From the NCBI RefSeq assembly GCF_002968295.1, contig NZ_CP134399.1, positions 4,960,001 through 5,024,000 of the forward strand: a stretch of 64,000 nt of DNA. Reading direction: 5' to 3'. Shown here piece by piece: positions 20,607-61,335 of this stretch. The stretch's first letter is position 1. The number at the start of each line of letters is the position of its first letter. Origin of the DNA: Mycobacterium sp. ITM-2016-00317 (GTDB lineage: Bacteria; Actinomycetota; Actinomycetes; Mycobacteriales; Mycobacteriaceae). The notes under the pieces were generated by a model. That model made no database searches. It was not told the DNA's origin and was given only the letters and a program-made list of their open reading frames with translations. A program made the translations under genes and the position numbers.

Positions 20607-20625
20607 CGTGAAGTTAGCCTTCACG
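20607..20625. promoter_or_regulatory. 19-bp operator, copy A (CGTGAAG-N5-CTTCACG)
   Basis: CGTGAAGTTAGCCTTCACG is a perfect 7-bp dyad, 42 bp before the SDR2 start and in the divergent gap with esterase 1. Copy B (61317-61335) matches 16 of 19 bases in the same orientation relative to its gene. Confidence 0.7.
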
Positions 20626-35836: not shown

Positions 35837-36003
35837 GCATTCCCCCCTCAATCGCATTCAATAAGAATGCCGACTAACATTTTCGGCCTATATGGCTGTA
35901 TATTGCTATCTAGTAGTCGAGCTTCTCTGAAGTTTGCACTCACGACGGCCGCGGTCGCAGCTACCGAGGAGCGGTCGTGTTCGACCCCGGAAAGGCGCCG
36001 CCA

Positions 36004-38981: not shown

Positions 38982-40185
38982 CGAAGCGTTCATCTACGAG
39001 GCGATCCGTACCCCGCGCGGTAAGCAGCGCGGCGGCGCCCTCAACGAGGTCAAGCCGATCAGTCTCGTCGTCGGTCTGGTCAATGAGATGCGAATCCGAT
39101 TCCCGCACCTGGACGAGACCATGATCTCCGATCTGATCCTGGGCGTGGTGTCCCCGCTGGGCGATCAGGGTGCCGTGCTGGCCCGTACCGCCGTGCTGGC
39201 CGCCAAGTTGCCCGACACCACCGGCGGTGTGCAGATGAACCGGTTCTGCGGATCCGGATTGGAAGCCGTCAACACCGCCGCGCAGAAGGTGCGTTCGGGC
39301 TGGGACGACCTGGTGCTCGCCGGCGGCGTGGAGTCGATGAGCCGGGTCCCGATGGGTTCTGACGGCGGCGCCTGGGCCAACGACCCCGAGACCAACTATG
39401 CGGTGTCCTTTGTGCCCCAAGGCATCGGCGCCGACCTGATCGCCACCATCGAGGGCTTCTCCCGCGAGGACGTCGACGCCTACGCGGTGCGCAGCCAGCA
39501 GCGCGCGGCCGCGGCCTGGTCGGGTGGCTACTTCGCCAAATCGATCGTGCCGGTCAAGGATCAGAACGGCCTGGTCATCCTCGACCACGATGAGCACATG
39601 CGGCCTAACACCACCCTGGAGAGCCTGGGCAAACTCAAGCCCGCGTTCATCGACATCGGCGCCATGGGTGGCTTCAACGAAGTCGCGCTGCAGAAGTACC
39701 ACACGGTCGAGAAGATCAACCACGTCCACCACGGTGGCAACAGCTCGGGCATCGTCGATGGCGCCGCCCTGCTGCTGATCGGATCCGAGAAGGCCGGCGT
39801 GGCACAGGGACTGACTCCGCGGGCACGCATCGTCGCGACGGCCACCAGCGGCGCGGACGGCACCATCATGCTGACCGGGCCCACCCCGGCCACCCGCAAG
39901 GTGCTCGACCGGGCCGGGCTGACCGTCGACGACATCGACCTGTTCGAACTGAACGAGGCCTTCGCCTCGGTGGTGCTCAAGTTCCAGAAGGACCTGGGCA
40001 TCCCGGACGAGAAGCTCAACGTCAACGGTGGCGCCATCGCGATGGGCCACCCACTCGGCGCCACCGGCGCCATGATCACCGGAACCATGGTCGACGAACT
40101 CGAACGCCGCGGCGCCAAGCGTGCACTGATCACCCTGTGCATCGGCGGCGGCATGGGCGTGGCCACCATCATCGAGAGGGTTTAA
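38974..40185 (+). CDS. fadA: Acetyl-CoA acyltransferase (thiolase) FadA
   Basis: A 403-residue degradative thiolase: active Cys92 in RFCGSGLEA, His in GHPLGATGA, second Cys in LCIGGGMG. It overlaps the BVMO stop by 8 bp and has GAGGA upstream. It lies 5 bp before fadB, the arrangement of the mycobacterial trifunctional enzyme (Rv0859-Rv0860). Confidence 0.95.
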
Positions 40186-40190
40186 CCGCA

Positions 40191-42338
40191 ATGACCGAGA
40201 ATACGATTCAGTGGGACAAAGATGCCGACGGCATCGTCACCCTGACGTTGGACGACCCGACCGGCTCGGCCAACGTGATGAACGACCATTACCGCGAGTC
40301 GATGCACAACGTGGTGAATCATCTGGAGGCAGAGAAGGATTCGGTCACCGGCGTGGTACTCACCAGCGCCAAGAAGACCTTCTTCGCCGGTGGTGATCTC
40401 AAGGGCCTGATCAAGCTCGGACCCGAGGATGCCGCGGCGGCGTTCGAGCTGGCCGAGTCCGCCAAGCGTGATCTGCGCCGGCTGGAGACCCTCGGCGTGC
40501 CGGTGGTGGCGGCTATCAACGGTGCCGCCCTCGGTGGCGGCCTGGAGATCGCGCTGGCCACCCACCACCGCATCGCCGCCGACGTGCGCGGAGTGGTGAT
40601 CGGCCTGCCCGAGGTGACCCTGGGGCTGCTGCCCGGCGGTGGCGGCGTGGCCCGCACCGTGCGCATGTTCGGTGTGCAGAAGGCCTTCACCGAGATCCTG
40701 TCGACCGGCGCCCGGTTCAGCCCGGCCAAGGCCAAGGACATCGGTCTGGTCGACGAATTGGTCGGCAGCGTCGAGGAATTGGTACCCGCCGCCAAGTCGT
40801 GGATCAAGGCGAATTCGGAGGCGCACACCCAGCCGTGGGATACCAAGGGCTACAAGATGCCCGGCGGCACTCCCTCTTCGCCGGGCCTGGCAGCCATCCT
40901 GCCGTCCTTCCCGGCGACGTTGAAGAAGCAGCTCAAGGGCGCCCCGGTGCCCGCGCCGCGGGCCATCTTGGATGCCGCGGTCGAGGGTGCGCAGGTCGAT
41001 TTCGACACCGCCTCGCGCATCGAGAGCCGCTACTTCGTGCAGCTGGTGACCGGGCAGACCGCGAAGAACATGATCCAGGCGTTCTTCCTCGATCAGCAGT
41101 CCATCAGCGGCGGCGCCTCGCGCCCGGAGGGCATCGGCTCGACCCCGATCACCAAGATCGGCGTACTGGGCGCGGGCATGATGGGCGCCGGTATCGCCTA
41201 CGTGTCGGCCAAGGCCGGCTACGACGTCGTACTGAAGGACGTCACGATCGAGGCCGCGCAGAAGGGTAAGGCCTACTCGGAGAAAATCGAGGCCAAGGCG
41301 GTCAGCCGCGGGCAGACCACTCAGGAGAAGTCCGACGCGCTGCTCGCCAAGATCGCCCCGACCGCGGATGCGGCCGATCTGGCCGGTGTCGATTTCGTGA
41401 TCGAGGCGGTGTTCGAGGACGAAACCCTCAAGCACAAGGTGTTCGGCGAGATCGAGGACATCGTCGAACCCAACGCCATCCTCGGCTCGAACACCTCCAC
41501 GCTGCCGATCACCGGTCTGGCGGCCGGCGTGAAGCGCCAGGAGGACTTCATCGGCATCCACTTCTTCAGCCCCGTCGACAAGATGCCGCTGGTGGAGATC
41601 ATCAAGGGCGAGAAGACCTCTGACGAGGCGCTGGCCCGGGTGTTCGACTACACCCTGGCGATCAAGAAGACCCCGATCGTGGTCAACGACAGCCGCGGGT
41701 TCTTCACCTCTCGGGTGATCCGGACCTTCGTCAACGAGGCCATGGCGCTGCTGGGCGAGGGCATCGAACCCACCACCATCGAGCAGGCCGGCGGACAGGC
41801 CGGCTACCCCGCGCCTCCGCTGCAGCTGCTCGACGAGCTCAACCTGGAACTACTGCAGAAGATCTCGATCGCCTCCAAGGCCGCGGCCGCGAGCGAGGGC
41901 ACGACCTACGTCGAGCACCCGGGTGAGCTCGTGGTCGAGAAGATGATCGAGATCGGTCGTCCGTCGCGCCTGAAGGGTGCGGGCTTCTACGAGTACGTCG
42001 ACGGCAAGCGGGCCGGGTTGTGGCCGGGCCTGCGGGAGACCTTCAACTCCGGCAGCACCACGATCCCGCTGCAGGACGCCATCGACCGCCTGCTGTTCTC
42101 CGAAGCCCTGGAGACGCAGAAGTGCTTCGACGAGGGTGTCCTGAAGACCAGTGCCGACGCGAATGTCGGGTCGATCCTGGGCATCGGGTACCCGGCCTGG
42201 ACCGGTGGTTCCGCGCAGTACATCGTCGGCTACGAGGGTCCCCACGGTGTCGGTAAGGCCGCGTTCGTGGCCCGGGCCAAGGAGCTGGCCGCCCGCTACG
42301 GCGACCGCTTCACCCCGCCCGCCTCGCTGGAAAGCTAG
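40191..42338 (+). CDS. fadB: Multifunctional enoyl-CoA hydratase/3-hydroxyacyl-CoA dehydrogenase FadB
   Basis: A 715-residue alpha subunit of the beta-oxidation complex. The N-terminal crotonase domain has oxyanion segments FFAGGDLKGL and NGAALGGGLEIA. The 3-hydroxyacyl-CoA dehydrogenase has GVLGAGMMGAGIA and the HFFSPVDKMPLVEII catalytic region, then the C-terminal helical domain. The N-terminus (NTIQWDKDADGIVTLT) is close to Rv0860. It may be a second copy of, or the only, FadAB complex in this genome. Confidence 0.96.
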   Translation: MTENTIQWDKDADGIVTLTLDDPTGSANVMNDHYRESMHNVVNHLEAEKDSVTGVVLTSAKKTFFAGGDLKGLIKLGPEDAAAAFELAESAKRDLRRLETLGVPVVAAINGAALGGGLEIALATHHRIAADVRGVVIGLPEVTLGLLPGGGGVARTVRMFGVQKAFTEILSTGARFSPAKAKDIGLVDELVGSVEELVPAAKSWIKANSEAHTQPWDTKGYKMPGGTPSSPGLAAILPSFPATLKKQLKGAPVPAPRAILDAAVEGAQVDFDTASRIESRYFVQLVTGQTAKNMIQAFFLDQQSISGGASRPEGIGSTPITKIGVLGAGMMGAGIAYVSAKAGYDVVLKDVTIEAAQKGKAYSEKIEAKAVSRGQTTQEKSDALLAKIAPTADAADLAGVDFVIEAVFEDETLKHKVFGEIEDIVEPNAILGSNTSTLPITGLAAGVKRQEDFIGIHFFSPVDKMPLVEIIKGEKTSDEALARVFDYTLAIKKTPIVVNDSRGFFTSRVIRTFVNEAMALLGEGIEPTTIEQAGGQAGYPAPPLQLLDELNLELLQKISIASKAAAASEGTTYVEHPGELVVEKMIEIGRPSRLKGAGFYEYVDGKRAGLWPGLRETFNSGSTTIPLQDAIDRLLFSEALETQKCFDEGVLKTSADANVGSILGIGYPAWTGGSAQYIVGYEGPHGVGKAAFVARAKELAARYGDRFTPPASLES

Positions 42339-44110: not shown

Positions 44111-45310
44111 ATGACAGAGACGCTGACCCGTGACGCCGACACCGACTCGCGGCTGGACGACTACCTGCAGCGCGTGCGCGCCATCACCCCGTTGATCCGG
44201 TCCGAAGCCGAGGCCATGGAGCGTGCGCAGACGCTGAGCGACGCCGTCCGCGATGCGCTCACCGAGCAGAACCTGCACCGCATGCTGATCCCGACCGAAT
44301 TCGGCGGCGGCGGATTGCTCCCGAGTGAGGGTCTGCGTGTCTACGAAGAGATGGCCAAGGCCGACGCGTCGACCGCATGGGCGTTCATGGCGACCTCGTG
44401 GTCGACCGCCGAGGTGCTCGGCTACCTCGAGCCCGAGGTGGCCAAGGACCTGATGAGCCGGGACGAGGACTTCCGCGTCGCCGGACAGCTGCTCCCCCGA
44501 TACCCGGCCACGCAGGTCGAGGGGGGTCTGATCGTCGAGGGCAACTTCGCGTTCGCCAGCGGATCGGACCACGCCACCTGGATCGGCGCCGGCGTGTTCG
44601 TCGCCGACGAGGACGGTAACGCGATCCTCGGCGAGGATGGGCAGCCGCAGCCCCGCGTCGCCATGTTCCCCAAGGCCGAGGTCGACCTCAAGCAGAACTG
44701 GGATGTCTGGGGCCTGGGCGCCACCGGCAGCCACGACTACCGGGTGGACAAGAAGTTCGTCCCCAACGAGCACACCATCGTCACCTTCGGCGGCACGCCC
44801 TACCGGTCGGAGACGATCTACAAGCTGTCCAACGAGTTCGTCGGCCCGCTGCCGCACGTCCCGGTCGTGCTCGGTATCGCGACCCGCGCGCTGGAACTGC
44901 TTGCCGCGGTGGCCCTCAAGAAGTTCCGGCCTAACTACGGCGGCCCGATCGGCGAGGCCGACATCTTCAAGATCGAGTTCGCCCGGATGGAGGCGCTGCT
45001 GCACGCCGTCCGGCTCGCGTTCTACGACCTCGTCGAGTCGGCCGAAGCCACTGTGGACGCCGGCCATACCCGCACCCCGGAACAGATGGCCCGGATGCGC
45101 CAGCAGCTGGCCTGGAGCCATGAGGCCATGGACACCATCGTCGGCTTCGCCCACCGCTGGAGCGGCAGCCAGAGCATCGGCCGGACAAGCACACTGGGCC
45201 GGTACGTGCGCGATATGCAGGTGGCTACCCAGCATCTGCTGGTGGATCCGAAGTTCTTGGCCGACGCAGCGACCGACCTGCTGCCCATCTACGCCGCGGC
45301 CGGGGCCTGA
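44111..45310 (+). CDS. ACAD-fold flavin-dependent monooxygenase (HsaA-like)
   Basis: A 399-residue protein of the acyl-CoA-dehydrogenase fold group-D hydroxylases. N-terminal IRSEAEAMERAQTLSDAVRDAL, FGGGGLLPSE, flavin-side WGLGATGSHDY, and a C-terminal Acyl-CoA_dh_2 helical domain (RDMQVATQHLLVD). It lacks the ACAD catalytic YEGT motif. HsaA-type enzymes use reduced flavin from a separate reductase; the candidate is 25 kb away at 18954-19445. Substrate unknown; a dehydrogenase role is less likely. Confidence 0.82.
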   Translation: MTETLTRDADTDSRLDDYLQRVRAITPLIRSEAEAMERAQTLSDAVRDALTEQNLHRMLIPTEFGGGGLLPSEGLRVYEEMAKADASTAWAFMATSWSTAEVLGYLEPEVAKDLMSRDEDFRVAGQLLPRYPATQVEGGLIVEGNFAFASGSDHATWIGAGVFVADEDGNAILGEDGQPQPRVAMFPKAEVDLKQNWDVWGLGATGSHDYRVDKKFVPNEHTIVTFGGTPYRSETIYKLSNEFVGPLPHVPVVLGIATRALELLAAVALKKFRPNYGGPIGEADIFKIEFARMEALLHAVRLAFYDLVESAEATVDAGHTRTPEQMARMRQQLAWSHEAMDTIVGFAHRWSGSQSIGRTSTLGRYVRDMQVATQHLLVDPKFLADAATDLLPIYAAAGA

Positions 45311-47000: not shown

Positions 47001-47897
47001 CTAGAAGACGAGGTGCTTCCGGATGAACGCCCCTGCTTCATCGGCCGCCTGACGGCCCTCGGGCAGGATCGAGGAGAACAACGGCCACACGTGCACCATG
47101 TCGTCGTACTCGGACACCGCCGCGGTACCACCGGCGGCACTCATCGCGGCCGCCGCGCGGCGCGAGTCGTCGAGCAGCACCTCGGTGGAACCGACGAGGA
47201 AGAGCGACGGCGGGAGTCCGCCCAGTTGGGCGAACACCGGCGAGGCGAGCGGGTCCCGCGGATCGTGACCCTGCAGGTATGCCTCCCCCAGGTTCGCGAT
47301 GGAGCCACGGGAGACGGCGATGTCACTGCCGTCGTACAGGTCGACGCTCGCACCGCTCGCGGTGAAGTCCAGCAGCGGTGAGACAAACACCGCCGCCGCG
47401 GGCAGAGGTGCCCCGCGGTCGCGCAGGACCGTCAGCGCAGCGAGCGTCAGCCCGCCGCCCGCGGAGTCTCCCCCGACCACGACACTGTCCGCGCCGTAGG
47501 TGGACACCAGGTCCGTGAGTGCCGCGACACCGTCGTCGACGGCAGCGGGAAACTTGTTCTCCGGAGCGCGCCGGTAATCCGGCAGCACGACCGTCACCCC
47601 GGAAGCGCGCGACAGGGTGTGGCCCAGCTCCTGGAATCCCCTGGCGCTGCCGAGGACGTATCCCCCGCCGTGGAACCACACGAGCACCTTGTCGCGGGTG
47701 GCGCCGTCGGCGGTGACGGACAGCACCGGGATTCCGCCGGCCATGCCCTCGACGGGTTCGACCCCTGCCGGAAGGGGGAACTGCAGCAGCAGCTCGTCGT
47801 AGGCAGTGCGCAGGTCGTCCACTGTCGCGGTCGCAGGGTCCGGGAAGCCATTCACGTACATGTCCTCGACCCGCGCCAACGCCTCGGTTCTCGCCAT
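47001..47897 (-). CDS. Alpha/beta hydrolase, HSL-family esterase/lipase 2
   Basis: A 298-residue esterase: HGGG oxyanion motif, GGDSAGGG nucleophile elbow, GSTEVLLDD and the catalytic His in MVHVWPLF. It is paralogous to esterase 1 (shared PDYRRAPEN, GHDPRDPL and SPVFAQ-type segments). GGAGG lies 4 nt before the ATG. Divergent from the NDP-forming ligase across 167 bp that contain a CTTCCGGAAG palindrome. Confidence 0.88.
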   Translation of the reverse strand: MARTEALARVEDMYVNGFPDPATATVDDLRTAYDELLLQFPLPAGVEPVEGMAGGIPVLSVTADGATRDKVLVWFHGGGYVLGSARGFQELGHTLSRASGVTVVLPDYRRAPENKFPAAVDDGVAALTDLVSTYGADSVVVGGDSAGGGLTLAALTVLRDRGAPLPAAAVFVSPLLDFTASGASVDLYDGSDIAVSRGSIANLGEAYLQGHDPRDPLASPVFAQLGGLPPSLFLVGSTEVLLDDSRRAAAAMSAAGGTAAVSEYDDMVHVWPLFSSILPEGRQAADEAGAFIRKHLVF

Positions 47898-50270: not shown

Positions 50271-52118
50271 TCAGAAGGCGGCCTCGTCCAGCTCCATCAC
50301 GAAGTTGTCGACCGTCATCGCGGCTGCCCGTTGGGCGGCGACGGTCGGCAGCACCTCGCGCGCGAAGAAGCGTGCGGCACTGACCTTCCCGCGGTAGAAC
50401 GCAATGTCGGAGGTTCCCGGGGCTGATGCCAGGGCGCTCTCGGCGATGCGGGCGCTGCGCAGCAGCAACCACGCCACGACGACATCACCGAGGACGTAGA
50501 GCAGGCGGGTCGCGTTCAGGCCGACCCGGTAGATGCTATCGGCACTGTCCTGAGCGGCGGCCAGGTCGGCGGTCATCTTGGCGACGATCGCTTCCACGTC
50601 GGCCACCGCCTGGGCCAGCAGTGCGCGTTCGGCGGCCAGATCGCCGGCCGGGTCCGATGAGCCCGCGAAACTCCTGATCTCGGTGAGCAGATGGGACAGC
50701 GCCCGGCTCCGGTCACGAACCACCTTGCGGAAGAACAGGTCCTGCGCCTGGATCGCCGTCGTGCCCTCGTAGACCGTGTCGATCTTGGCGTCGCGGACGT
50801 ACTGCTCGATGGGATAGTCCCGCAGGTAGCCCGACCCCCCGAAGGTCTGCAGCGACTCGGTGCCCAGGATCACCCAGGACCGTTCCGACCCGTAGCCCTT
50901 CACGATCGGCAGCAGAAGATCGTTGACGGACTCGGCCAGACCGGTGTCGTCGCCTGCGGCCGCCTTCACCGCGATCTCGTCCTGCCAGGACGCGGTGTAG
51001 AGGATCAGCGAGCGCATCCCCTCGGCGTAAGCCTTCTGGGTCAGCAGCGAGCGCCGGACGTCCGGATGACGGGTGATCGTCACCCGCGGGGCAGACCTGT
51101 CCGAGGTCTGGGTGAGGTCGGCGCCCTGCACCCGCTGTTTGGCGTACTCCAGCGCGTTCAGGTAGCCGCTCGACAGCGTGGCGACGGCCTTGCAGCCCAC
51201 CATCATGCGCGCATCCTCGATGACCTCGAACATCTGGGCGATACCGTCGTGCACCTCACCGAGGAGCCACCCGCGGGCCGGCTCGTCGTCGCCGAGCGTC
51301 ACCTCGCACGTGGTGGACACGTTCATGCCCATCTTCTTCTCGACGTTCGTGGCGTAGGCGCCGTTGCGCTCACCCGTGAGTTCACCGGTGTCGAGGTCGA
51401 AGTGGTTCTTGGGGACCAAGAACAGGCTCAGACCTTTCGTCCCCGGCCCGCCGACGCCGTCCACCCCCACCGGCCTGGCCAGGACGAGGTGCAGGATGTT
51501 GTCCGCCAGGTCGTGTTCGGCTGCGGTGATGAACCGCTTCACGCCGTGGATGTTCCAGGTGCCGTCCGCGTTGGCGACCGCCCGGGTCCTACCGGCTCCG
51601 ACGTCGGAGCCGGCATCCGGCTCGGTCAGCAGCATCGTTGCGCCCCAACGATTGTCGACGGCGATCTGGGCGATCTTCTTGTCCCGCTCGGTGCCGTGCC
51701 GGTAGATCACCCGGGCTGCGGTCGGGATGCCGACGTACGTCCACAGCGCCGGGTTGGCTCCCAGGACGAACTCGGCCAGCGCCCAGTTGAGCGAGTTCGG
51801 CGCACTGGTGCCGCCCAGTTCGGGCAGCACACGCAGCCGCCACCACTCGGCATCCATCCACGTCTTGTACGTCGCCGCGAACGACGGCGTCATCGTGACC
51901 GTCTTGTCGACCGGGTCGTACACCGGCGGATTGCGATCGGCGTCCTCGAACGACTCGGCGAGATCCTCACGCGACAGCCGTTCGACCTCGCGAAGGATGA
52001 ACTTCGCAGTGTCGAGGTCGATCTCGGAATAGGGGGCAACACCGAAGACTTCCTCCCGTTCGAGCAGCTCGAACAGGTTGAACTCGATGTCACGCAGATT
52101 GGTCTTGTAATGGCTCAT
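50271..52118 (-). CDS. Acyl-CoA dehydrogenase, FadE5-like long form
   Basis: A 615-residue ACAD with N-terminal and C-terminal extensions beyond the usual 380, like FadE5 (Rv0244c). It begins MSHYKTNLRDIEFNLFELL. FAD/substrate segments are MLLTEPDAGSDVGAGRT and FGGSGYLRDYPIEQYVRDAKIDTVYEGTTAIQ with catalytic Glu in YEGT. It introduces the 2,3-double bond in acyl-CoA. Divergent from tandem TetR 2, a possible repressor. Confidence 0.94.
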   Translation of the reverse strand: MSHYKTNLRDIEFNLFELLEREEVFGVAPYSEIDLDTAKFILREVERLSREDLAESFEDADRNPPVYDPVDKTVTMTPSFAATYKTWMDAEWWRLRVLPELGGTSAPNSLNWALAEFVLGANPALWTYVGIPTAARVIYRHGTERDKKIAQIAVDNRWGATMLLTEPDAGSDVGAGRTRAVANADGTWNIHGVKRFITAAEHDLADNILHLVLARPVGVDGVGGPGTKGLSLFLVPKNHFDLDTGELTGERNGAYATNVEKKMGMNVSTTCEVTLGDDEPARGWLLGEVHDGIAQMFEVIEDARMMVGCKAVATLSSGYLNALEYAKQRVQGADLTQTSDRSAPRVTITRHPDVRRSLLTQKAYAEGMRSLILYTASWQDEIAVKAAAGDDTGLAESVNDLLLPIVKGYGSERSWVILGTESLQTFGGSGYLRDYPIEQYVRDAKIDTVYEGTTAIQAQDLFFRKVVRDRSRALSHLLTEIRSFAGSSDPAGDLAAERALLAQAVADVEAIVAKMTADLAAAQDSADSIYRVGLNATRLLYVLGDVVVAWLLLRSARIAESALASAPGTSDIAFYRGKVSAARFFAREVLPTVAAQRAAAMTVDNFVMELDEAAF

Positions 52119-52241
52119 CAGGAGTGCCTCTCACGTTCTGTCGGCCTGCCGGACCACCGAAGACGGTCGCTGAATGGGCCCTGGTACCGGGACGGCGGAA
52201 TCCGTGAACCATAACTCCAGCGCGCGGGGCTGGTCAATATG

Positions 52242-52263
52242 CCGTTATAGTGCAGGTATACGG
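52242..52263. promoter_or_regulatory. Imperfect dyad with -10 box before tandem TetR 2
   Basis: CCGTTATA and TATACGG form an imperfect inverted repeat around TATAGT (52246-52251). It lies in the 244-bp divergent gap with the FadE5-like gene and is a candidate autoregulatory site. Confidence 0.35.
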
Positions 52264-52362
52264 GACGGAGTAAATCTCAAATATGCCCTTCGGGACGCAG
52301 GTGGGCCGGCTGCGCGGGGATGCGAAACTGGACGCATGGTCCAGCCGATCGGAAAGCGTGAG

Positions 52363-53601
52363 ATGACAGGACCGACTGCCGAACGCGTGGAGTCCGTGAA
52401 GGCGACCCTGCGGAAGTCTGCACGCGGCAGCCATCGGACCGAGCAGGTGGCGCGGGCGGCCGCCCACCTGTTCCAGGACTACGGCTACCAGAATGTCAGC
52501 ATCGACCGGATCGGCGCGGCCGTCGGCCTGACCGGCCCCGCGGTGTACCGGCATTTCAAGGGCAAGCACGAGATTCTGGTGCACGCGTTGATGAGCCAGG
52601 TGCGACTGGTCGACGAACTCCACTCCGCGGCGACCGAGCAGGGCACGACACCCGAAGAGCGCTTGCATCTGCTGATTGCCGGACTGGCGGACCTGACGGT
52701 CAACGGCAACGAAGCGACCCTGTGGCGTCGGGAACAGCGCCATCTCGCCGACGTCGAGCGGAAGGTGTTCCGGCGCCACTTCACCGACAACCACGAACGC
52801 ATCGCCGCACAGATCCTGGCCCACAAACCCGACCTCGGCCAGCAGAAGGCCGATCTCCTCGGGTTCGCGGTCCTGGCAATGTATTCCAACACTCCGGACA
52901 TCCGGGGCACCCTGCCTGCCGATCGCCTGCAGGAGATCCAGACCGCCATCGCATGGGCGATCATCGACTGTCCCCTTCCCGATACCGACCCGGCCGCCAC
53001 CGTGACCACGGCGCCGATGCCCCGCCGGCCCGCAGGCCGCCGTGAGCGCATCATCGACGCGGCCGCACGCCTGTTCAACGAGCGCGGCTTCTACGACGTC
53101 CACATCGACGACATCGCCAGAGAGTCCGAGATGTCGACCGCCACGCTGTACCAGCACGTGGCGAGCAAGACGGAGGTGCTGCGCGCCGTCCTGGAACGCG
53201 GTGCGGAGGGTCTGCTCTACGTGACCGCCGACGCCCTGGCCTACGCCACGGGCCCCGAAGAGGCACTCGACGCGCTGATCGAGACCTACATCCGGCAGGC
53301 GGTGGGCCCGTACGGCCGGATCATGCACATCCTCGCAGCGGACCTGCTGTACCTACCCGAAGACGAGCAGCAGGCGCTGCGCAGCGCGCAGCGCGAATAC
53401 CTGGCCGAGTGGGTGGAAGTCATCGAGGCGCTGTCCGGCGGTCTGACGCCCCACGACGCCCGCGCGCTCACGCAGGCCGCCATCGGTGTCGTCACCGACA
53501 TCACCCAGAACCCGGACCTCCGCCGACGGCCTCAGCTCGTCGAGGAGCTCACGGCCGTCGTCCACGCCATGGTGCTGCCGCCCGGACTCGAACCGGCCTG
53601 A
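52363..53601 (+). CDS. Tandem-TetR regulator 2 (Mce3R-like), intact
   Basis: A 412-residue regulator with two complete TetR modules. HTH 1 is IDRIGAAVGLTGPAVYRHF and HTH 2 (about residue 245 on) is IDDIARESEMSTATLYQHV, each followed by a ligand-binding helical domain. The architecture and segments such as LWRREQRHLAD resemble Mce3R, the mce3/mel2 repressor. The ATG at 52363 has GGAAAGC upstream. It converges with the operon end at 53606, 4 bp away. It is the intact template that reveals the frameshift in regulator 1. Confidence 0.9.
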   Translation: MTGPTAERVESVKATLRKSARGSHRTEQVARAAAHLFQDYGYQNVSIDRIGAAVGLTGPAVYRHFKGKHEILVHALMSQVRLVDELHSAATEQGTTPEERLHLLIAGLADLTVNGNEATLWRREQRHLADVERKVFRRHFTDNHERIAAQILAHKPDLGQQKADLLGFAVLAMYSNTPDIRGTLPADRLQEIQTAIAWAIIDCPLPDTDPAATVTTAPMPRRPAGRRERIIDAAARLFNERGFYDVHIDDIARESEMSTATLYQHVASKTEVLRAVLERGAEGLLYVTADALAYATGPEEALDALIETYIRQAVGPYGRIMHILAADLLYLPEDEQQALRSAQREYLAEWVEVIEALSGGLTPHDARALTQAAIGVVTDITQNPDLRRRPQLVEELTAVVHAMVLPPGLEPA

Positions 53602-53605
53602 TGCG

Positions 53606-54010
53606 CTATGCCGGCAGTCCCGGTAGCAGACCCCGCGAGATCTCGACCGCGATGTCGTCGGCGCTGAACGCCGCGACCGCCCGGACGACGGCGGGGTCGA
53701 CGCCGCCGGCATATGCAGCCGCCAAACGCTCTCCGACGATCCGGCGTTCGGTCCGCAGCGCGTCGAGGCCGTCGCCGGAGCCGTCCGGCTGTGCCCCCAC
53801 CGCGGTCGCCAGCTCGCGGGTCCGCGCGACCGACGCCGACACTTCGGCAGCGTCCCAGGACAGCCGCCGGTTCAGGTTGTCCAGCATCTCGATCACCGCG
53901 TGCAACTCGCCGCGGGCGGACTCCGACTCGACCGCGGGCAGCACCTTCTCGACCAGCGTCTGCCGGACGGTCTTCTGCACTTCGTCGAGATCCATTGCGT
54001 ATACGGTCAT
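53606..54010 (-). CDS. Small helical protein, LvaB-like position
   Basis: A 134-residue, mostly helical acidic protein (MTVYAMDLDEVQKTVRQTL, ELHAVIEMLDNLNRRLSWD). No recognised domain. It starts 1 bp after the kinase stop (TGAGATG), so translation is coupled. In Pseudomonas the levulinate kinase LvaA needs a small protein, LvaB, encoded next to it; an analogous accessory role is a positional inference, not a sequence match. Confidence 0.7.
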   Translation of the reverse strand: MTVYAMDLDEVQKTVRQTLVEKVLPAVESESARGELHAVIEMLDNLNRRLSWDAAEVSASVARTRELATAVGAQPDGSGDGLDALRTERRIVGERLAAAYAGGVDPAVVRAVAAFSADDIAVEISRGLLPGLPA

Positions 54011-54011
54011 C

Positions 54012-55082
54012 TCACGCTCCCCATTCTCCGTCACGGAGCATCTGATTGAGCCATCCGAGGCTGTAGTAGATGCTGTGGGCCATGTTCGCGTACCGGAGTT
54101 CGGGACGGTCGCCACGCTCGTAGATCGCCACGGCCTGCAGACATCCGATGGCGGTCTTGGTCAGCGACTGCACCGCCCACCAGGTCAGGCTCGCCGGGTC
54201 CGGACGCCATTCGGCGGCCGCCGCGTACTCGTCGAGGAACTCGTCGATGCCGAGCAGCTTGCACGCCAGCGGCGACCGGCCACGAGAGGTGCGCTGGAAG
54301 AACCAGGCGAGGTCGGCGATCGGATCGCTGAAATGGGCGGTCTCCCAGTCCAGGATGCCGATCAGGCTGCCGTCCTGCGGGTGCACCACCAGGTTGCCTA
54401 CCCGGAAATCGTTGTGCACCAGGGAAACGCGCCCCGACACCTGGTCGGCGCGGTGATCCAGCCAGGCCAGCGCGAGGTCCAGCACCGGGATCCGGACGGA
54501 CGCGACCTCGTCGTAGGTCTGCCGCCATTGCCGGTTCTCGACACGTCCGGTGTCTGCGGCCGCCGGCGGCGGGTCGAGCTCGGGCAGGGTCAACGACTCC
54601 GGTGCGGCGGCGTGCAGCCTGGCCATCTCGCGTGCCACCCGGCGGCCGAGTGCGGCCCGGTCCCCGGGGTCGGTGATGACCCGCGTGACGCTGTGCGGCA
54701 TCGGGACGACGCCGACGAGGCGTTCCATCACGAAGAAGCCGCGGTTGCCCGGTTCCCCGACACGGTGTGCGACCACCCCGGGCACCGGCAGCCCCAGGCC
54801 GGCGGCCGCGCGCAGCAGCGCCACCTCGCGCGCCACGTCGTAGCTGCCCACGATCCCGCTCAGCGGTTCACGTTTGACCGCGAACGACGCGCTCTGGTCC
54901 TGACCCCACGTGGCGGTGACCAGATAGGTCTCCCACGAGTTGCCCTCGCCGCGCTGGTCGACGTCGACCAACTCGACCTTGCGTCCCCCGGCCACCTGCG
55001 CCGCGAGCACCGCCGTCAGTTCCGCCAGGAACGCCGATGTGCCGTCAGTCATGGCGGTCTCGCCTTCCACCGTCGCTGTCAT
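54012..55082 (-). CDS. APH-family phosphotransferase (ACAD10/11- or LvaA-like acyl-CoA kinase)
   Basis: A 356-residue aminoglycoside-phosphotransferase-fold kinase. Nucleotide-side segment SASFAVKREP, hinge FFVMERLVG, catalytic loop LVHNDFRVGN and metal-binding LDWETAHFSDP are all present. Relatives fused to ACAD domains (ACAD10/11) or beside them (LvaA) phosphorylate the 4-hydroxyl of 4-hydroxyacyl-CoA. Its place between an SDR/ACAD/ligase group and a small helper favours that over antibiotic resistance. GGAGG lies upstream of the ATG. Confidence 0.85.
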   Translation of the reverse strand: MTATVEGETAMTDGTSAFLAELTAVLAAQVAGGRKVELVDVDQRGEGNSWETYLVTATWGQDQSASFAVKREPLSGIVGSYDVAREVALLRAAAGLGLPVPGVVAHRVGEPGNRGFFVMERLVGVVPMPHSVTRVITDPGDRAALGRRVAREMARLHAAAPESLTLPELDPPPAAADTGRVENRQWRQTYDEVASVRIPVLDLALAWLDHRADQVSGRVSLVHNDFRVGNLVVHPQDGSLIGILDWETAHFSDPIADLAWFFQRTSRGRSPLACKLLGIDEFLDEYAAAAEWRPDPASLTWWAVQSLTKTAIGCLQAVAIYERGDRPELRYANMAHSIYYSLGWLNQMLRDGEWGA

Positions 55083-55101
55083 GATGATCGTCCTCCAGGT
55101 C

Positions 55102-55876
55102 CTAGACGACGCTGACCGAGCGGCCGCCGCCGTCCACGGTGATGCGCTGGCCCGTCACATATTCCGCGTCGGCGGACACCAGGAAGGCCACGGCGCCCGC
55201 CACGTCGGCGGGCGTGCAGACCCGGCCGAACGGATAGCGCGCCGCCAGGTCCTCGATCGACCCGCCGCCGGTCGCGGCCTTCACCAGGCGCCGACCCATC
55301 TCGGTCTCCACCAGGCCGGGCGCGACGATATTGGCCCGGATGTTGTGTGCGCGTTCTTCTTGCGCGAGCGTGCGGACGCACATCTCCATCGCGGCCTTGG
55401 CCATCGTGTACGGCGCCGACAGAGCAGGCGCCTCGCCGACGGTGCTGCTGGAGATCATCACCACGTCGCCGCGGCCCGCCGCGCGCATGTCGGGCAGCAC
55501 CCGCTGGATCAGATGGATGGGACCCAGCGCGTGCACCCGGAGCAACGACATGAAGTCGGCCACCGGAGTGTCGGCGACAGGCTGCCCCTTGCTCGCGGTG
55601 CCCGCGTTGCTCACCACGAGGTCGACCGGACCGAGGTCGGCGCGCACCGCATCGACCATCGCGTCGACGGCGGCCTCGTCGTCGATCGCCGCGCCGTAGG
55701 CCTTGGCCCCCCCCGGCGGAAACGATCTGGGCCACAACCTCGTCAGCGGCACCGGAATCGCGCCGGTAGTTCACCGCCACTGCGGCGCCATCGGCCGCGA
55801 GGCGTAGCGCGATACCGCGCCCGACGCCGCGCGAGCTGCCGGTCACCACTGCCACACGTCCGTCCAACCGGGACAT
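55102..55876 (-). pseudogene. Short-chain dehydrogenase (SDR3), frameshifted in a G8 run
   Basis: The first about 50 residues (VAVVTGSSRGVGRGIALRLA) are in the frame of the ATG at 55876. From AKAYGAAIDDE onward, with the NAG motif (VVSNAGT), SSSTV, the YTMAK active site and the C-terminal VTGQRITVDGGG, the protein is one frame over, ending at 55102. The shift sits at eight C on the plus strand (55707-55714); seven would restore SAGGAKAY. In the Lva comparison it takes the LvaD place, reducing a 4-oxoacyl-CoA or oxidising a hydroxyacyl-CoA. Confidence 0.85.
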
Positions 55877-57015
55877 CAACCCACCACCGCTCGTCCGACG
55901 AGGTCCTTCATGACCTCGTTCGCTCCGCCATAGATCCGCTGGATGCGCGCATCACGCCACATCCGGGCGATCGGATACTCCTCCATGTAGCCGTAGCCAC
56001 CGAACATCTGCAGCACCCGGTCCAGGACGTCCCATTGCAGATCCGTCGCCTTGTACTTCGCGCCGGCCGCTTCGGCCGCGGTGAGTTCACCGTCGTTGAG
56101 CGCGAGCACACAACGGTCGACGTACTCCTGCAGGATCGCGATATCGGTGTGCATCTCGGCGATCTGCATGCGGACCGACTGCAGCTGCGCCAGCGGTCCC
56201 CCGAACGCGTTGCGCTGGCGGGCGTGGTCGAGCCCCAACTCCAGGGCATGCCGGGCCGATGCCACGGCCGCGACCGCGATCGACAGCCGTTCCCGAGGCA
56301 AATTGGCTATCGCGCAACCGAATCCGCGTCCCGGTTCGCCGACGATGTTCGACACCGGCACCCGGCAGTCGTCGAAGAACAGTTCCGCGGTGTCCTGCGC
56401 CTTGCGGCCGATCTTGTGCATGGGCCTGCCCCGCTCGAACCCGGGCGTCCCGTTCTCGACGGCCACGAAGGTGGTGCCCCGGCCGTCACGCTCCCCGGTG
56501 CGCACCAGCACGATCGCCAGATCGCAGGTCGCCCCGCTGGTGATGAATGTCTTCTGCCCGTTGATGACCAGGTGGTCGCCGTCGCGCCGCGCGCTCGTCG
56601 CGATCGCCGCCAGGTCGGACCCGGCACCGGGCTCGGTCAACCCGAGCGCGGTCACGCACTCGCCACCGGTGAACGCCGGCAGCCACCGTTGTTGCTGCTC
56701 GGGGGTGGCCAGGTCACGCAGGTACGGCACGATGATGTCGTTTTGCATCGAGAAGAGGTCGCCCGCCATGCCGGAGGCGACGACTTCTTCGGTCATCACC
56801 GCGTTGTAGCGGAAGTCCTCGATGCCAAGACCGCCGTACTCCGGGGCGAACTCGAAGCCCAGGAAGCCGTTCTCACCGGCGGCGCGGATGAACTCGCGGG
56901 CCACGGTGCCTGCGTCCTCCCACTCCTCGATGTGGGGGACGGCGGCGTGGTCGATGAACGCGCGGAACGCTTTCCGGAACGCCTCGTGTTCCTCGGTGTA
57001 GAGGGTCCTACGCAC
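55876..57015 (-). CDS. Acyl-CoA dehydrogenase-family protein (LvaC-like candidate)
   Basis: A 379-residue ACAD: LGLTEPGAGSDLAAI, ITSGATCDLAIVLVRTG, RNAFGGPLAQLQSVR and QMFGGYGYMEEYPI for FAD and substrate. The usual YEGT catalytic Glu is replaced (IYGGANEVM). A Glu in NLPRERL could act, as in isovaleryl-CoA dehydrogenase, or the enzyme may catalyse a different reaction such as 4-phosphoacyl-CoA elimination. The GTG start overlaps the ligase stop by 8 bp and its stop overlaps SDR3. Confidence 0.88.
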   Translation of the reverse strand: MRRTLYTEEHEAFRKAFRAFIDHAAVPHIEEWEDAGTVAREFIRAAGENGFLGFEFAPEYGGLGIEDFRYNAVMTEEVVASGMAGDLFSMQNDIIVPYLRDLATPEQQQRWLPAFTGGECVTALGLTEPGAGSDLAAIATSARRDGDHLVINGQKTFITSGATCDLAIVLVRTGERDGRGTTFVAVENGTPGFERGRPMHKIGRKAQDTAELFFDDCRVPVSNIVGEPGRGFGCAIANLPRERLSIAVAAVASARHALELGLDHARQRNAFGGPLAQLQSVRMQIAEMHTDIAILQEYVDRCVLALNDGELTAAEAAGAKYKATDLQWDVLDRVLQMFGGYGYMEEYPIARMWRDARIQRIYGGANEVMKDLVGRAVVG

Positions 57016-58563
57016 TCGACTTCTCCTCCTGCTCCTGCCAGTACTTGTCGCGCAACTGACGCTTGTACAACTTGCCGGTCGGCAGCCGGGGCATCTCTTC
57101 GATGAAGTCGAACGACTTGGGGCACTTGAACCTGGCCAGGTGATCCAGGCAGAACGCGCGCAACGTCTGCGCGAGTTCGGGAGTTCCGCCGCGCGGGTCG
57201 ACCGGCTGGATCACCGCTTTCACGGCTTCCCCGAAGTCCTCGTCGGGAACTCCGAAGACCGCGGCGTCCATCACATCGGGATGGGTGATCAGCAGGTTCT
57301 CGATCTCCTGCGGGTAGATGTTCACCCCGCCGGAGATGATGACGAAGGCCTGGCGGTCGGTGAGGAACAGGTAGCCCTCTTCGTTCAGGTATCCGATGTC
57401 GCCGATCTTGGACATGGTGCCGCTGGGATCCTGGGCTTCGGCGGTCTTCTCGGGATCGTTGAGGTACTCGAAAGAGCTGTTGCCGCCGCGGAACCAGATG
57501 TTCCCGGCAGCGCCGACAGGCAGCTCGTTGCCGCCGTCGTCGCGGATCACGATCTCGCCGAAGAACGCCTTGCCGACCGTCCCGGGGTTGGCCAGCCACT
57601 CCTGCGGGGTGCAGCCGCACGTGCCGTTCGCCTCGGTCCCGCCGTAGTACTCGTAGATCACCGGACCCCACCAGTCCAGCATGTCCTGCTTGACCTGCCG
57701 GGGACACGGCGCTGCTCCGTGCACGACCGCCTCCAGCGAGGAGTAGTCGTACTTTTCCCTGATCTCCGTCGGCAACTTCAGGATTCGCGAGAACATCGTC
57801 GGCACGACCATGGTATGGGTGGCCCGGAACTCCTCGATCAGGGACAGGAACTGTTCGGTGTCGAAGCGTTCCATCACGATGTTGGTGGCGCCCAGTCGCA
57901 GACCGATCGAAATGCTCGACTGCGGCCCGGAATGGTAGAGCGGCGCAGTGGACAGAAACGTCATGCCCTCGCGCATCCGGAACAGGCGTTTGCCCATCTC
58001 CTCGATGCCGAGTTGCTCGTCGGGGGATACATCGGGGAGGTGACGTTTGACGGCCTTGGGTCGGCCCGTGGTGCCCGACGAGTAGAACATCGGAGTGCCG
58101 AGACGTTCGCCGTCACCGGGTGTCGGCGGATACTGCTCGATCACCGCGGAGAGACTCTCGAAGGGCGCCGGTGGCGCGTCGGCACCGATCACCAGCCACT
58201 GCTCGACCTTCGGGCACAGCTCCGGGAAATGCTGGGCCACAGCGAATTTCGCCGCAGTGGTGATCACCAGCCGTGCACCACAGTCATCGACGATATAGGC
58301 CGCTTCCTCCACCGAGAGGAAGGAGTTGATCGGCGTGTAGTACAGCCCGCACCGTTCCGCGGCCGGCATCGTCACGATCATGTCGAGGTGGTTCTCGGCG
58401 AAGAGCGCGATGTGGTCGCAGCGTTTGAGCCCGAGTGCGCGGAAGTGGCGGCCACCCGATTGGCGCGCTCGTCGAACTCGCGGTAGGTGAGGGTCTCCCG
58501 ACTGCCCGCCATGATCAGCGCGGGACGATCGGGATTCTCGCGAACGTTGCGTGAGGGATACAT
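57008..58563 (-). pseudogene. Acyl-CoA synthetase (FadD family) b, frameshifted near the N-terminus
   Basis: The N-terminal 40 residues (MYPSRNVRENPDRPALIMAG, LTYREFDERANRVA) are in one frame. The rest (FRALGLKRCDHIALF, FYSSGTTGRPKAVKR, YEYYGGTEANG, terminal PTGKLYKRQLRDKYW) is in another, open from 58381 if an internal start is used. Adding one base at the GG of 58447-58448 joins them (VAA-HFRALGL). Full length would be about 518. It would activate the acid that the downstream ACAD/SDR/kinase genes process. Confidence 0.86.
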
Positions 58564-58580
58564 GTCGGCTCCGGCTCCCG

Positions 58581-59564
58581 CTAGCTGAGGGGGCGCAGGA
58601 ACTCGGCGATGCCCCAGCCGCCCTGGCCGTTGGCGTACCGGACCGACATCTGGCCCATTCGCGCGGCGCGGTCGGCGGTGCGCTGGGTCACGGGGACGAA
58701 GTGGTTGATCGTCCCGTCGAGCACCATCGTCGGCAATCCGTCAGCGGTGATCACCGCGGTGTTGCGGCCGGAATATGTTGCCTCTCCGGCATAGTCGGTG
58801 TAGACGGTGTAATCCCGGATCGGATGGAACACGCCGTCAGGCGTGATGACGACCCCGCCCGATGCCCGTACACCGTTGGGCTCGAACTCGCCGTATGCCG
58901 TGATCGCCGTACCGTCGACCAGCCAGGCGGCCAGCCATTCGCCGTTGTAGGACGCCCACTCCCGTGGTCCCCACGAATGGTCCCGGAACGACGTGGCCTT
59001 GTCCACCTGCCAGGTCGTCCCCCCGACGCGTACCGACCCGCTGACGTGACCGAACTGTTCGTAATGGTCGGTGGCGATCTGCGAACTGCCGGGGGTGCAG
59101 TCACCGTCTTCGGCAATGGTGAACATCGGCACCGAGGCCTCGAACGTCAGCGCGATCTCACACTCCAGCGACGGCGAGTTCTTCAGCGCCTGCCTGCCCC
59201 GCTCGGCCAGCAGCGACGGGGTGCTGATCAGCGCAACGGTGTTGCGGTAGTTCACCTCCCACGTGCGCGTGGCCTCCTTGGGCACGATCTCAAGCCCCTG
59301 GGTCGCCCAGCGGTCGTTGGTCTCGTTCGGCTGACGACCGGCGCGCAGGGCGATCCGGCCGCCGGGCAGTGTCAGCTGCACCGTCGCCTCGGAGTAGCCC
59401 ATCGTCGGCCGGTTCCCGATACGCATGAGCGCGCTGACTTCGCTGACGGGGTCGACGAAGTTGACGTAGACGCTCTCGTTGTAGTTGGCGATGCCCGCCG
59501 GATCGTGGGTGAATTCGGCGTCTGTGCCGTACTGGCATGCGGTGAACGGCGCTGTTGAGTCCAT
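58581..59564 (-). CDS. DUF7064/CrtC-like lipocalin-fold protein
   Basis: A 327-residue protein rich in beta strands with the conserved segment KATSFRDHSWGPREW, seen in hydroxyneurosporene synthase (CrtC)/AttH-like proteins often found beside mycobacterial acyl-CoA genes. It may bind or hydrate a lipid. Exact function unknown. It lies 22 bp after the ECH gene and 17 bp before ligase b, clearly in the operon. Confidence 0.75.
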   Translation of the reverse strand: MDSTAPFTACQYGTDAEFTHDPAGIANYNESVYVNFVDPVSEVSALMRIGNRPTMGYSEATVQLTLPGGRIALRAGRQPNETNDRWATQGLEIVPKEATRTWEVNYRNTVALISTPSLLAERGRQALKNSPSLECEIALTFEASVPMFTIAEDGDCTPGSSQIATDHYEQFGHVSGSVRVGGTTWQVDKATSFRDHSWGPREWASYNGEWLAAWLVDGTAITAYGEFEPNGVRASGGVVITPDGVFHPIRDYTVYTDYAGEATYSGRNTAVITADGLPTMVLDGTINHFVPVTQRTADRAARMGQMSVRYANGQGGWGIAEFLRPLS

Positions 59565-59586
59565 GCGGGCCTCCGGTTCGGAATGG

Positions 59587-60456
59587 TCAGAAGTAGTCGG
59601 CGGGATCGTCGTCCAGCGGCGGGAAGACCGCGGGACGGCGTTCCAGAAACGACATCACGCCTTCGTGGACGTCGGCGGTGCGCAATCGACTGGCGTACAC
59701 CCTTGATTCGTCCTCACATGCCGACCGCGGCGTCGCATGCCCCCAGCTGCGGCCGAGCAGCCGGCGCGACAGCGCGACCGAGGCCGGCGACGTGTCGGTG
59801 ACGAAGACCCGCGCATAGGCCATCGCCTCGTCGAGCACGGCGTCGGCCGCGACGACGCGGGTCAGCAGCCCGGCCTCGTAGGCCTCGGCCGCGCCGAAGA
59901 CCCGCCCGGACAGCACCCAGTCGGTGGCTCTCGTCAGGCCGACCAGCCGCGGCAGGAACCACGACGACGCGCTCTCGGGGACCACGCCGCGCCGGGTGAA
60001 CACGAACCCGAAACGCGAGCGCTCGCCGGCGATGCGCACGTCGGTGGCGGCCATGATCGACGCTCCCCCACCGACCGCGTCGCCGTTGACGGCGGCGATC
60101 ACCGGGGTACGCATGTCGAACAGCCGCTCACTGACCCGGCCGCCCGGTTCGCGGTAGCCCGTCGGCGTGTGTCCGGGGGCGTCCTCCTGGAGCGCCTCCA
60201 GCAGGGTGTCCGGGCCGGTGAGTTCCGCGCCGACGCAGAAGTGGTCCCCGGCTCCGGTCAGCACCACCGCACGGACTGCCGGATCCCGGTCGGCGATGTC
60301 GAGGGCATCCCAGAGATCACGCAACATCTGGTTGCGCAACGCGTTTCGGCGATGGGGTGCGTTGAAGCTGATGACCGCGACACCGTCGTCGAACCGGTAG
60401 TCGATCTCCTCGTAGGCCGGCGGTTGCCGATGGTCGGTCACCGCTGCCCCGCTCAC
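59587..60456 (-). CDS. Enoyl-CoA hydratase/isomerase family protein
   Basis: A 289-residue crotonase: ISFNAPHRRNAL, oxyanion segments HFCVGAELTG and NGDAVGGGASIM, then FVFTRRGVVPESASSWFLPR, where a Glu lies in the second catalytic loop. It hydrates or isomerises enoyl-CoA, e.g. the 3-enoyl product of a 4-hydroxyacyl-CoA route. The GTG at 60456 overlaps the SDR4 stop (GTGA); the longer frame is rejected. A GTG six codons later is possible. Confidence 0.9.
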   Translation of the reverse strand: MSGAAVTDHRQPPAYEEIDYRFDDGVAVISFNAPHRRNALRNQMLRDLWDALDIADRDPAVRAVVLTGAGDHFCVGAELTGPDTLLEALQEDAPGHTPTGYREPGGRVSERLFDMRTPVIAAVNGDAVGGGASIMAATDVRIAGERSRFGFVFTRRGVVPESASSWFLPRLVGLTRATDWVLSGRVFGAAEAYEAGLLTRVVAADAVLDEAMAYARVFVTDTSPASVALSRRLLGRSWGHATPRSACEDESRVYASRLRTADVHEGVMSFLERRPAVFPPLDDDPADYF

Positions 60457-61280
60457 GCTCCGCCGCTGCAGACCAGCGTCTGCGCGGTGATGTAGCTGGA
60501 CTCGGGAGCGCACAGCAGGTACACCGCGCCGGCGGCCTCTTCGACCTCGCCGCCGCGACCCAGGGCGATGCCCGCCGTGACGGTCTCGTAGACCGCCGGG
60601 TTGACGCCGACCTTGATCTCACGCCCGGCGACGTCGATGGTCTTGGCCTCGGTGGTCACCGCGGTCAGCCGGGTGTTGATCACGCCGTAGGCGATGGCGT
60701 TGACGGTGACGTTGTAGCGGCCCCACTCCTTGGCCAGCGTCTTGGTCATGCCGAGCAGGCCGGCCTTGGCGGTGGAGTAGTTGACCTGACCCGGGTTGCC
60801 CTGCATGCCCGAGATGGACGAGGTGTTGACGATGGCGCGCCGCGACGCGGTGCCGTTCTCGGCCTTCTCCTTCTTGGCCAGACCGGAGATCACCGGCTGG
60901 GCGGCCCGCAGGATGCGGAACGGCGCGGTGAGGTGCACGTCGATGATGTCGTTCCACTGCTGGTCGGTCATCTTCTGGATGACGTTGTCCCAGGTATAGC
61001 CGGCGTTGTTGACGATGATGTCCAGCCCGCCGAAGTTGTCGACGGCGGTTGCGACGAAGCGGTCGGCGAACTCGGGATCGGTGACGCTGCCGGTGCACGC
61101 GACGGCCTGCCCGCCCGCTGCCTCGATCGCGGCCACGACTTCCTGGGCGGGGTCGGCATCCAGATCGTTGATGACCACCCGGGCGCCCTCGGCGGCCAGC
61201 TTCTCGGCGACTGCGCGCCCGATTCCACGCCCCGATCCGGAGACCAGCGCTACCTTGCCGTCGAGCTTTCCTGCCGCCAC
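60453..61280 (-). CDS. Short-chain dehydrogenase SDR4 (FabG/3-hydroxyacyl-CoA dehydrogenase-like), operon leader
   Basis: A 275-residue SDR: GSGRGIGRAV, NNAGY, NTSSISGMQ and YSTAKAG. First gene of an eight-gene minus-strand operon down to 53606: SDR4, ECH, DUF7064, ligase b, ACAD, SDR3, kinase, small helper. Operator copy B ends 36 bp before the GTG start. Confidence 0.92.
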   Translation of the reverse strand: MAAGKLDGKVALVSGSGRGIGRAVAEKLAAEGARVVINDLDADPAQEVVAAIEAAGGQAVACTGSVTDPEFADRFVATAVDNFGGLDIIVNNAGYTWDNVIQKMTDQQWNDIIDVHLTAPFRILRAAQPVISGLAKKEKAENGTASRRAIVNTSSISGMQGNPGQVNYSTAKAGLLGMTKTLAKEWGRYNVTVNAIAYGVINTRLTAVTTEAKTIDVAGREIKVGVNPAVYETVTAGIALGRGGEVEEAAGAVYLLCAPESSYITAQTLVCSGGA

Positions 61281-61316: not shown

Positions 61317-61335
61317 AGTGAAGATTAACTTCACG
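61317..61335. promoter_or_regulatory. 19-bp operator, copy B
   Basis: On the minus strand: CGTGAAGTTAATCTTCACT, identical to copy A (20607-20625) at 16 of 19 positions. Both keep the GTGAAG-N5-CTTCAC dyad and face their gene in the same orientation. Confidence 0.7.

What the first reader, a model, noticed from the sequence alone, without database searches (positions are those of the whole stretch)
53606..61280. Lva-like 4-hydroxyacyl-CoA catabolic operon in a mycobacterium
One operon holds a FadD ligase, an SDR, an ACAD-family enzyme lacking the usual YEGT Glu, an APH-fold kinase and a small helical protein coupled to the kinase. That is the gene content of Pseudomonas lvaABCDE, where 4-hydroxyacyl-CoA is phosphorylated at C4 and converted to enoyl-CoA. 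An enoyl-CoA hydratase, a second SDR and a DUF7064 protein extend it. This could be a route for gamma-hydroxy acids released from lactones made by the Baeyer-Villiger enzyme in the same island.
Basis: partly seen in the sequence, partly recalled or inferred. Interest (0 to 1): 0.75.

Follow-up and report, generated by a model that had tools for sequence, protein, structure and literature searches.

The report
Hydroxyl kinase paired with phosphate-removing lyase
A mycobacterium carries a gene cluster that probably activates a hard-to-remove hydroxyl group with ATP and then strips it off with a second enzyme of a kind recently seen at work on steroids, not with the enzyme used in the well-known levulinic-acid pathway.

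The parts
58581..59564 (-). DUF7065/DUF7064 protein, candidate phospholyase (25-phosphosteroid-lyase fold); Q170, R194, D195, S197, W198, G199, R201 shared with 25-PSL
54012..55082 (-). APH-fold kinase, candidate hydroxyacyl-CoA kinase (HNDFR..N and LDWE present)
   Evidence: PF01636; ACAD11 kinase; invariant H223, D225, N230, D245 in 17 rows; tree
53606..54010 (-). small all-helical protein, positional counterpart of LvaB; 1 bp after the kinase
   Evidence: no Pfam family; 13 homologs; helical model; downstream of the kinase in 9 of 9 related loci, within 10 bp in 8 and about 1.2 kb away in L121
55102..55876 (-). SDR 1, reading frame broken near 55.7 kb
   Evidence: single-frame in relatives
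55876..57015 (-). LCAD-type acyl-CoA dehydrogenase, predicted base E242
57008..58563 (-). FadD4-like acyl-CoA ligase, reading frame broken near 58.4 kb
   Evidence: NF038341 below its cut-off; single-frame in relatives
59587..60441 (-). enoyl-CoA hydratase
   Evidence: PF00378 and NF006109 above its cut-off
60453..61280 (-). SDR 2 (FabG-like)
61318..61334 (.). palindrome GTGAAG-N5-CTTCAC upstream of the operon, candidate TetR operator
   Evidence: a second perfect copy at 20608-20624
52174..53601 (+). regulator with two TetR_N matches, convergent to the operon, conserved in the Rhodococcus island (69%)
50271..52118 (-). ACAD of 615 aa (same island, 73% in Rhodococcus)
47001..47897 (-). alpha/beta hydrolase (Abhydrolase_3), candidate lactone or ester hydrolase
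44111..45310 (+). ACAD-like protein of 399 aa (same island, 63%)
38917..42338 (+). thiolase and FadB-like protein (same island, 71% and 55%)
35977..38981 (+). LLM F420-dependent oxidoreductase and 642-aa Baeyer-Villiger-type monooxygenase (same island, 66% and 57%)

Best explanation
The operon encodes an ATP-dependent dehydration step for a hydroxylated acyl-CoA made in a terpenoid- or alicyclic-type catabolic island. FadD makes the CoA ester (inferred). The APH kinase, with the small helical protein as partner, phosphorylates a hydroxyl that beta-oxidation cannot handle (inferred from homology to ACAD11's kinase). The DUF7065/7064 protein then eliminates phosphate to leave an alkene, as 25-phosphosteroid lyase does (inferred from fold, profile homology and motif). 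The LCAD-type ACAD, enoyl-CoA hydratase and SDRs, with the island's thiolase and FadB, complete beta-oxidation (inferred). Shown here: gene content, homologies, residue tests, conservation, and kinase-DUF7065 linkage and fusion. Not shown: substrate, position of the hydroxyl, and every activity.
Confidence: 0.6

Rival explanations
1. Lva/ACAD10-11-type route with the elimination enzyme supplied in trans: kinase plus small protein phosphorylate 4-hydroxyacyl-CoA, and an LvaC-type ACAD encoded elsewhere removes the phosphate. The DUF7065 protein binds or reshapes the substrate.
For: Kinase nearest to ACAD11's among solved structures; LvaC-type ACADs with DGP and GRIHH(C/A)MR motifs at 157034 and 4052702 of the genome; relatives of the 157034 protein at E <= 1e-70 in 7 of 7 cluster-bearing genomes; Sulfitobacter and Prosthecomicrobium keep an LvaC type beside kinase and small protein.
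Against: No LvaC type found in the 20-31 kb read at nine related loci although most of the rest is kept; one genomic LvaC-type copy sits beside another kinase (4054036), so it may have its own partner; it leaves the kinase-DUF7065 fusions unexplained.
Confidence: 0.2
2. Kinase and DUF7065 act on a free, bulky tertiary alcohol (terpenoid or sterol-like) before CoA activation, as 25-HSK and 25-PSL do in Sterolibacterium.
For: 25-PSL homology; mce uptake genes, P450 and BVMO in the same window; a lipid-transfer-protein gene with two MaoC genes in the Rhodococcus island.
Against: The kinase matches the acyl-CoA kinase ACAD11 (5e-17) better than 9fsg (7e-8), which I take, without proof, for 25-HSK; the alphaC Glu preceded by Arg is as in ACAD11, where 9fsg has Leu-Gln; FadD and ACAD are in the same operon.
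Confidence: 0.12
3. DUF7065 is a hydratase, isomerase or cyclase of the CrtC/AttH type unrelated to phosphate, and the kinase serves another step.
For: Kievitone hydratase, AttH and Diels-Alderases share the fold.
Against: Fusion and linkage with kinases; only 25-PSL and, weakly, AttH are found by the sequence profile.
Confidence: 0.08

Closest known systems
25-hydroxysteroid kinase / 25-phosphosteroid lyase (Sterolibacterium denitrificans; PMC8449060; PDB 9fzn, 9g2i, 9g4c)
   Same: phosphotransferase-like kinase plus a separate double-beta-barrel lyase; shared RD-SWG motif; ATP-dependent dehydration logic
   Different: Here the genes sit in one operon with CoA ligase, ACAD, ECH and a small helical partner; the kinase is nearer to ACAD11; in S. 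denitrificans the 2021 paper found no lyase candidate near the kinase gene
Pseudomonas putida lvaABCDE
   Same: kinase, small protein, SDR, CoA ligase and an ACAD-family gene in one operon
   Different: ACAD is LCAD-type without the LvaC residues; small protein not detectably DUF6285 by Pfam; a DUF7065/7064 protein and ECH are added
ACAD10 / ACAD11
   Same: related kinase domain; 4-hydroxyacyl-CoA chemistry is the nearest demonstrated one
   Different: those are kinase-ACAD fusions; here no fusion and no such ACAD. This genome has instead a kinase-DUF7065 fusion elsewhere (3348222-3350225)
Rv3168-Rv3169 operon of M. tuberculosis
   Same: kinase (3ats, taken for Rv3168 from recall; profile E 1e-36) next to an Rv3169-family protein (NF053593 hits the window protein at 1.3e-11, below its cut-off); operon under TetR Rv3167c (PMC5340868 passages)
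   Different: described there as a two-gene operon; 3ats has His-Gln where the window kinase has Arg-Glu

Membership tests
lva operon (lvaABCDE) | hydroxyacyl-CoA kinase of the LvaA/ACAD10-11 family | tested here: met
   ACAD11 kinase homology. LvaA's own sequence was not fetched; neither LvaA nor ACAD11 was in the tree
lva operon (lvaABCDE) | LvaB-type small partner (DUF6285; that LvaB is DUF6285 is recalled) | tested here: inconclusive
   No DUF6285 hit; hhalign probability 1-4% with small sets, 60% with larger sets, 39% with mostly-gap columns removed; that score was reached by 0 of 150 column shuffles and 0 of 100 reversed ones, but by 13 of 100 block shuffles, so the signal is local, about one N-terminal helix
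lva operon (lvaABCDE) | LvaC-type ACAD with catalytic Asp and R/H/R helix | tested here: not met
   G, N, I, A in place of D753, R626, H634, R637 (numbers mapped by me onto 8v3u); LCAD Glu present
lva operon (lvaABCDE) | SDR (LvaD) and CoA ligase (LvaE) with levulinyl-CoA activity | tested here: inconclusive
   Both present but generic families and frame-broken in this assembly
lva operon (lvaABCDE) | 4-hydroxyacyl-CoA phosphorylation | not testable with these tools
   needs an enzyme assay
25-PSL-like phospholyases | double beta-barrel fold of 25-PSL | tested here: met
25-PSL-like phospholyases | sequence-level relationship and conserved RD-SWG Asp | tested here: met
   profile E 4.1e-9, best single stretch 6e-4; D195. 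A single-sequence search found nothing
25-PSL-like phospholyases | phosphate elimination from a phosphoester | not testable with these tools
   needs an enzyme assay
LCAD-type acyl-CoA dehydrogenase | catalytic Glu on helix G (human Glu291) | tested here: met
   E242 aligned with Glu291; the same in 7 of 7 cluster ACADs aligned, window included
ACAD10/ACAD11 | kinase fused to ACAD | tested here: not met
   separate ORFs

The most novel reading that the evidence does not exclude
DUF7065/7064 proteins are a widespread family of phospholyases that work with APH-fold hydroxyl kinases, as operon neighbours or fused to them. Together they form a general ATP-driven dehydration module for hydroxyacyl-CoAs and terpenoid alcohols that stands beside the LvaC/ACAD10-11 solution. 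M. tuberculosis Rv3168-Rv3169 would be one such orphan pair.
Probability: 0.5. Interest if true: 0.78.

Novelty: new variant of a known kind. Interest (0 to 1): 0.64.

Why it matters
Bacteria and mammals need special chemistry to degrade acids whose hydroxyl blocks beta-oxidation. Two solutions appear in the papers I saw: kinase plus LvaC-type ACAD, and kinase plus a C-O lyase on sterols. This cluster looks like a third combination, an ACAD11-related kinase with a sterol-lyase-type partner. It gives a testable function to two domains of unknown function, to an M. tuberculosis gene of that family and to a kinase-DUF7065 fusion found in several mycobacterial relatives, and it suggests what large catabolic islands on Rhodococcus plasmids do.

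Tried and rejected
LvaC identity of the ACAD: rejected by residues. LvaC replaced by another ACAD of the island: the 615-aa ACAD has the ordinary Glu loop and the 399-aa one does not align at the site. Small protein as a member of a known family: no Pfam hit at E 0.001 and three irrelevant weak ones at E up to 10, no NCBIfam hit, Foldseek best E 3.7 on a modest model, so no fold claim is made. DUF6285 elsewhere in the genome: one match, 1789405, beside another kinase. Own-genome kinase-DUF7065 gene as Rv3168 ortholog: not supported, the Rv3168 piece gave no match there at E 1e-4; it is a fusion protein. Substrate from literature: the listings (8 papers; 10 of 185 listed) showed no paper on this cluster by title or abstract start; a fit to cineole- or limonene-like routes is only recalled chemistry and is not claimed. 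In print: (68 papers held at least one term, 20 listed) shows no occurrence of DUF7064 in the 20 listed; one search found the 25-HSK papers; one search was too broad to count (3,605 papers). The held 2021 and 2024 papers call the lyase unknown or putative (passages; sections); 2026 PDB titles were the only trace of the solved lyase that I saw. The linkage test used 23 of 29 distinct DUF7065 places (the window's own and five weaker ones left out); one stretch was only 3.6 kb and two began at a contig end.
Full report
What is there. The window lies at 4960001-5024000 of a 6.06-Mb single-contig genome; close homologs are named Mycolicibacterium and Mycobacterium. On the minus strand, 61280 to 53606, run SDR 2, enoyl-CoA hydratase, DUF7065/7064 protein, FadD, ACAD, SDR 1, APH kinase and a small protein. 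Spacing is tight; kinase and small protein are 1 bp apart. FadD and SDR 1 are each split over two frames in this assembly.

The island. In the rest of the window lie an mce operon, a P450, an LLM F420-type oxidoreductase, a 642-aa Baeyer-Villiger-type enzyme, thiolase, FadB-like protein, a second FadD, ACADs, an Abhydrolase_3 protein and a regulator with two TetR matches. A Rhodococcus plasmid (pRZP2) carries orthologs: SDR 2 78%, ECH 67%, DUF7065/7064 68%, FadD 70%, ACAD 81%, SDR 1 68%, kinase 64%, small protein 41%, BVMO 57%, LLM 66%, thiolase 71%, FadB 55%, TetR 69% (FadD and SDR 1 by their larger pieces). The kinase is patchy: 8 of 301 family genomes at E <= 1e-70, this one included, as expected for an accessory island. 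The small protein lies downstream of the kinase in 9 of 9, within 10 bp in 8 and about 1.2 kb away in L121. DUF7065/7064 is there in 8 of 9, the ninth (L119) being cut by its contig end. In six loci thiolase and FadB genes stand between DUF7065 and ACAD; L120 lacks ACAD and SDR 1 there, and L122 lacks FadD 1 there.

The ACAD is not LvaC. ACAD10/11 and LvaC use a catalytic Asp and a helix with Arg, His and Arg (PMC12440821 passages). In the window enzyme these four places read G, N, I and A (residue numbers mapped by me, the R626 place read from the aligned rows). Human LCAD's base Glu291 (PMC11153573 passages) is matched by E242. The seven cluster ACADs aligned agree, with A or S at the last Arg place. 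Best PDB matches are 2pg0 and LCAD. So the missing YEGT Glu is explained by an LCAD-type base, not by phosphate chemistry.

The kinase. ACAD11's kinase is its best match among solved structures. In a tree of 98 kinases (without ACAD11 and LvaA), the six rows labelled as having the small partner form one side of a branch against the 32 with a DUF6285 partner, and the reverse (both 100/99; 60 rows unlabelled, root for drawing only). The window clade with the Sulfitobacter group (13 rows, 98/89) joins 20 other kinases (33 rows, 99/87), many of which neighbour LvaC-type ACADs; some DUF6285-type kinases do so too. R85 matches ACAD11's R86, a residue tied to CoA in that paper. It is Arg in 6 of 12 small-type rows, in 17 of 17 rows of an ACAD10/11-like group (ACAD11 and 16 of those 20) and in 3 of 32 DUF6285-type rows.

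The small protein. No Pfam family; 13 homologs in the large protein database. A relative follows the kinase in Sulfitobacter, Bradyrhizobium, Prosthecomicrobium and one MAG: 3 of 80 distant loci, against 28 with DUF6285 and none with both. Profile comparison with DUF6285 rises to 60% with larger sets, but controls show that the signal is local, about one N-terminal helix. I leave LvaB kinship open.

Kinase and DUF7065 belong together. In Actinomycetota 9 of 23 DUF7065 places have such a kinase within about 6 kb, against 1 of 17 stretches of the same genomes (p 0.018, several places from one genome). Of the 9, four are one continuous ORF with an APH kinase first and DUF7065/7064 second, including this genome's 3348222-3350225; two others pair DUF7065 with a kinase and DUF6285 (L184, L185). 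In 101 family genomes the fusion matches in one open frame over at least 566 of 668 residues in 11. The Rv3168-Rv3169 operon appears to be the same pairing. Such fusions parallel ACAD10/11, where a kinase is fused to its eliminating enzyme.

How it most likely works. CoA activation, phosphorylation of an obstructive hydroxyl, elimination by DUF7065/7064, then beta-oxidation. The steps are inferred; the homologies and linkages are shown. The published precedent is 25-HSK with a separate C-O lyase that removes a tertiary hydroxyl at the cost of ATP (PMC8449060, sections 4 and 9).

Against this. No activity is shown; two loci (Sulfitobacter, Prosthecomicrobium) keep both an LvaC-type ACAD and DUF7065; LvaC-type ACADs exist elsewhere in this genome, and relatives of one, residues unchecked, in 7 of 7 relatives. 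These keep the trans-LvaC rival alive at about 0.2.

Noticed in passing
window 61318-61334 and 20608-20624: Two perfect copies of GTGAAG-N5-CTTCAC, one before the operon and one between a divergent hydrolase and SDR; with up to 2 mismatches 10 matches against 1.7 expected, 0 of 100 shuffles as many, though most of the imperfect ones lie in coding sequence. Possible shared TetR operator.
   Followed up: partly
G000:C1:3348222-3350225 (L209:6223-8226, minus strand): A 668-codon ORF joins an APH kinase and a DUF7065/7064 domain; the fusion matches in one frame in 11 of 101 family genomes.
   Followed up: partly
window near 55.7 kb and 58.4 kb: Frame breaks in SDR 1 and FadD; relatives have single-frame copies. 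Real decay or assembly error cannot be told.
   Followed up: partly
L010 (G000:C1:1783000-1797000): A second kinase with the genome's only DUF6285 match and an ACAD that has Glu, not Asp, at the catalytic loop.
   Followed up: no
L124 (G000:C1:4048000-4060000): An LvaC-type ACAD (DGP, GRIHHAMR) next to another APH kinase, a candidate true 4-hydroxyacyl-CoA pair of this genome.
   Followed up: no
window 45292-46869: Long ORF with a histidine-phosphatase domain; histidine phosphatases also sit beside LvaA-like kinases in Azoarcus and P. citronellolis.
   Followed up: no
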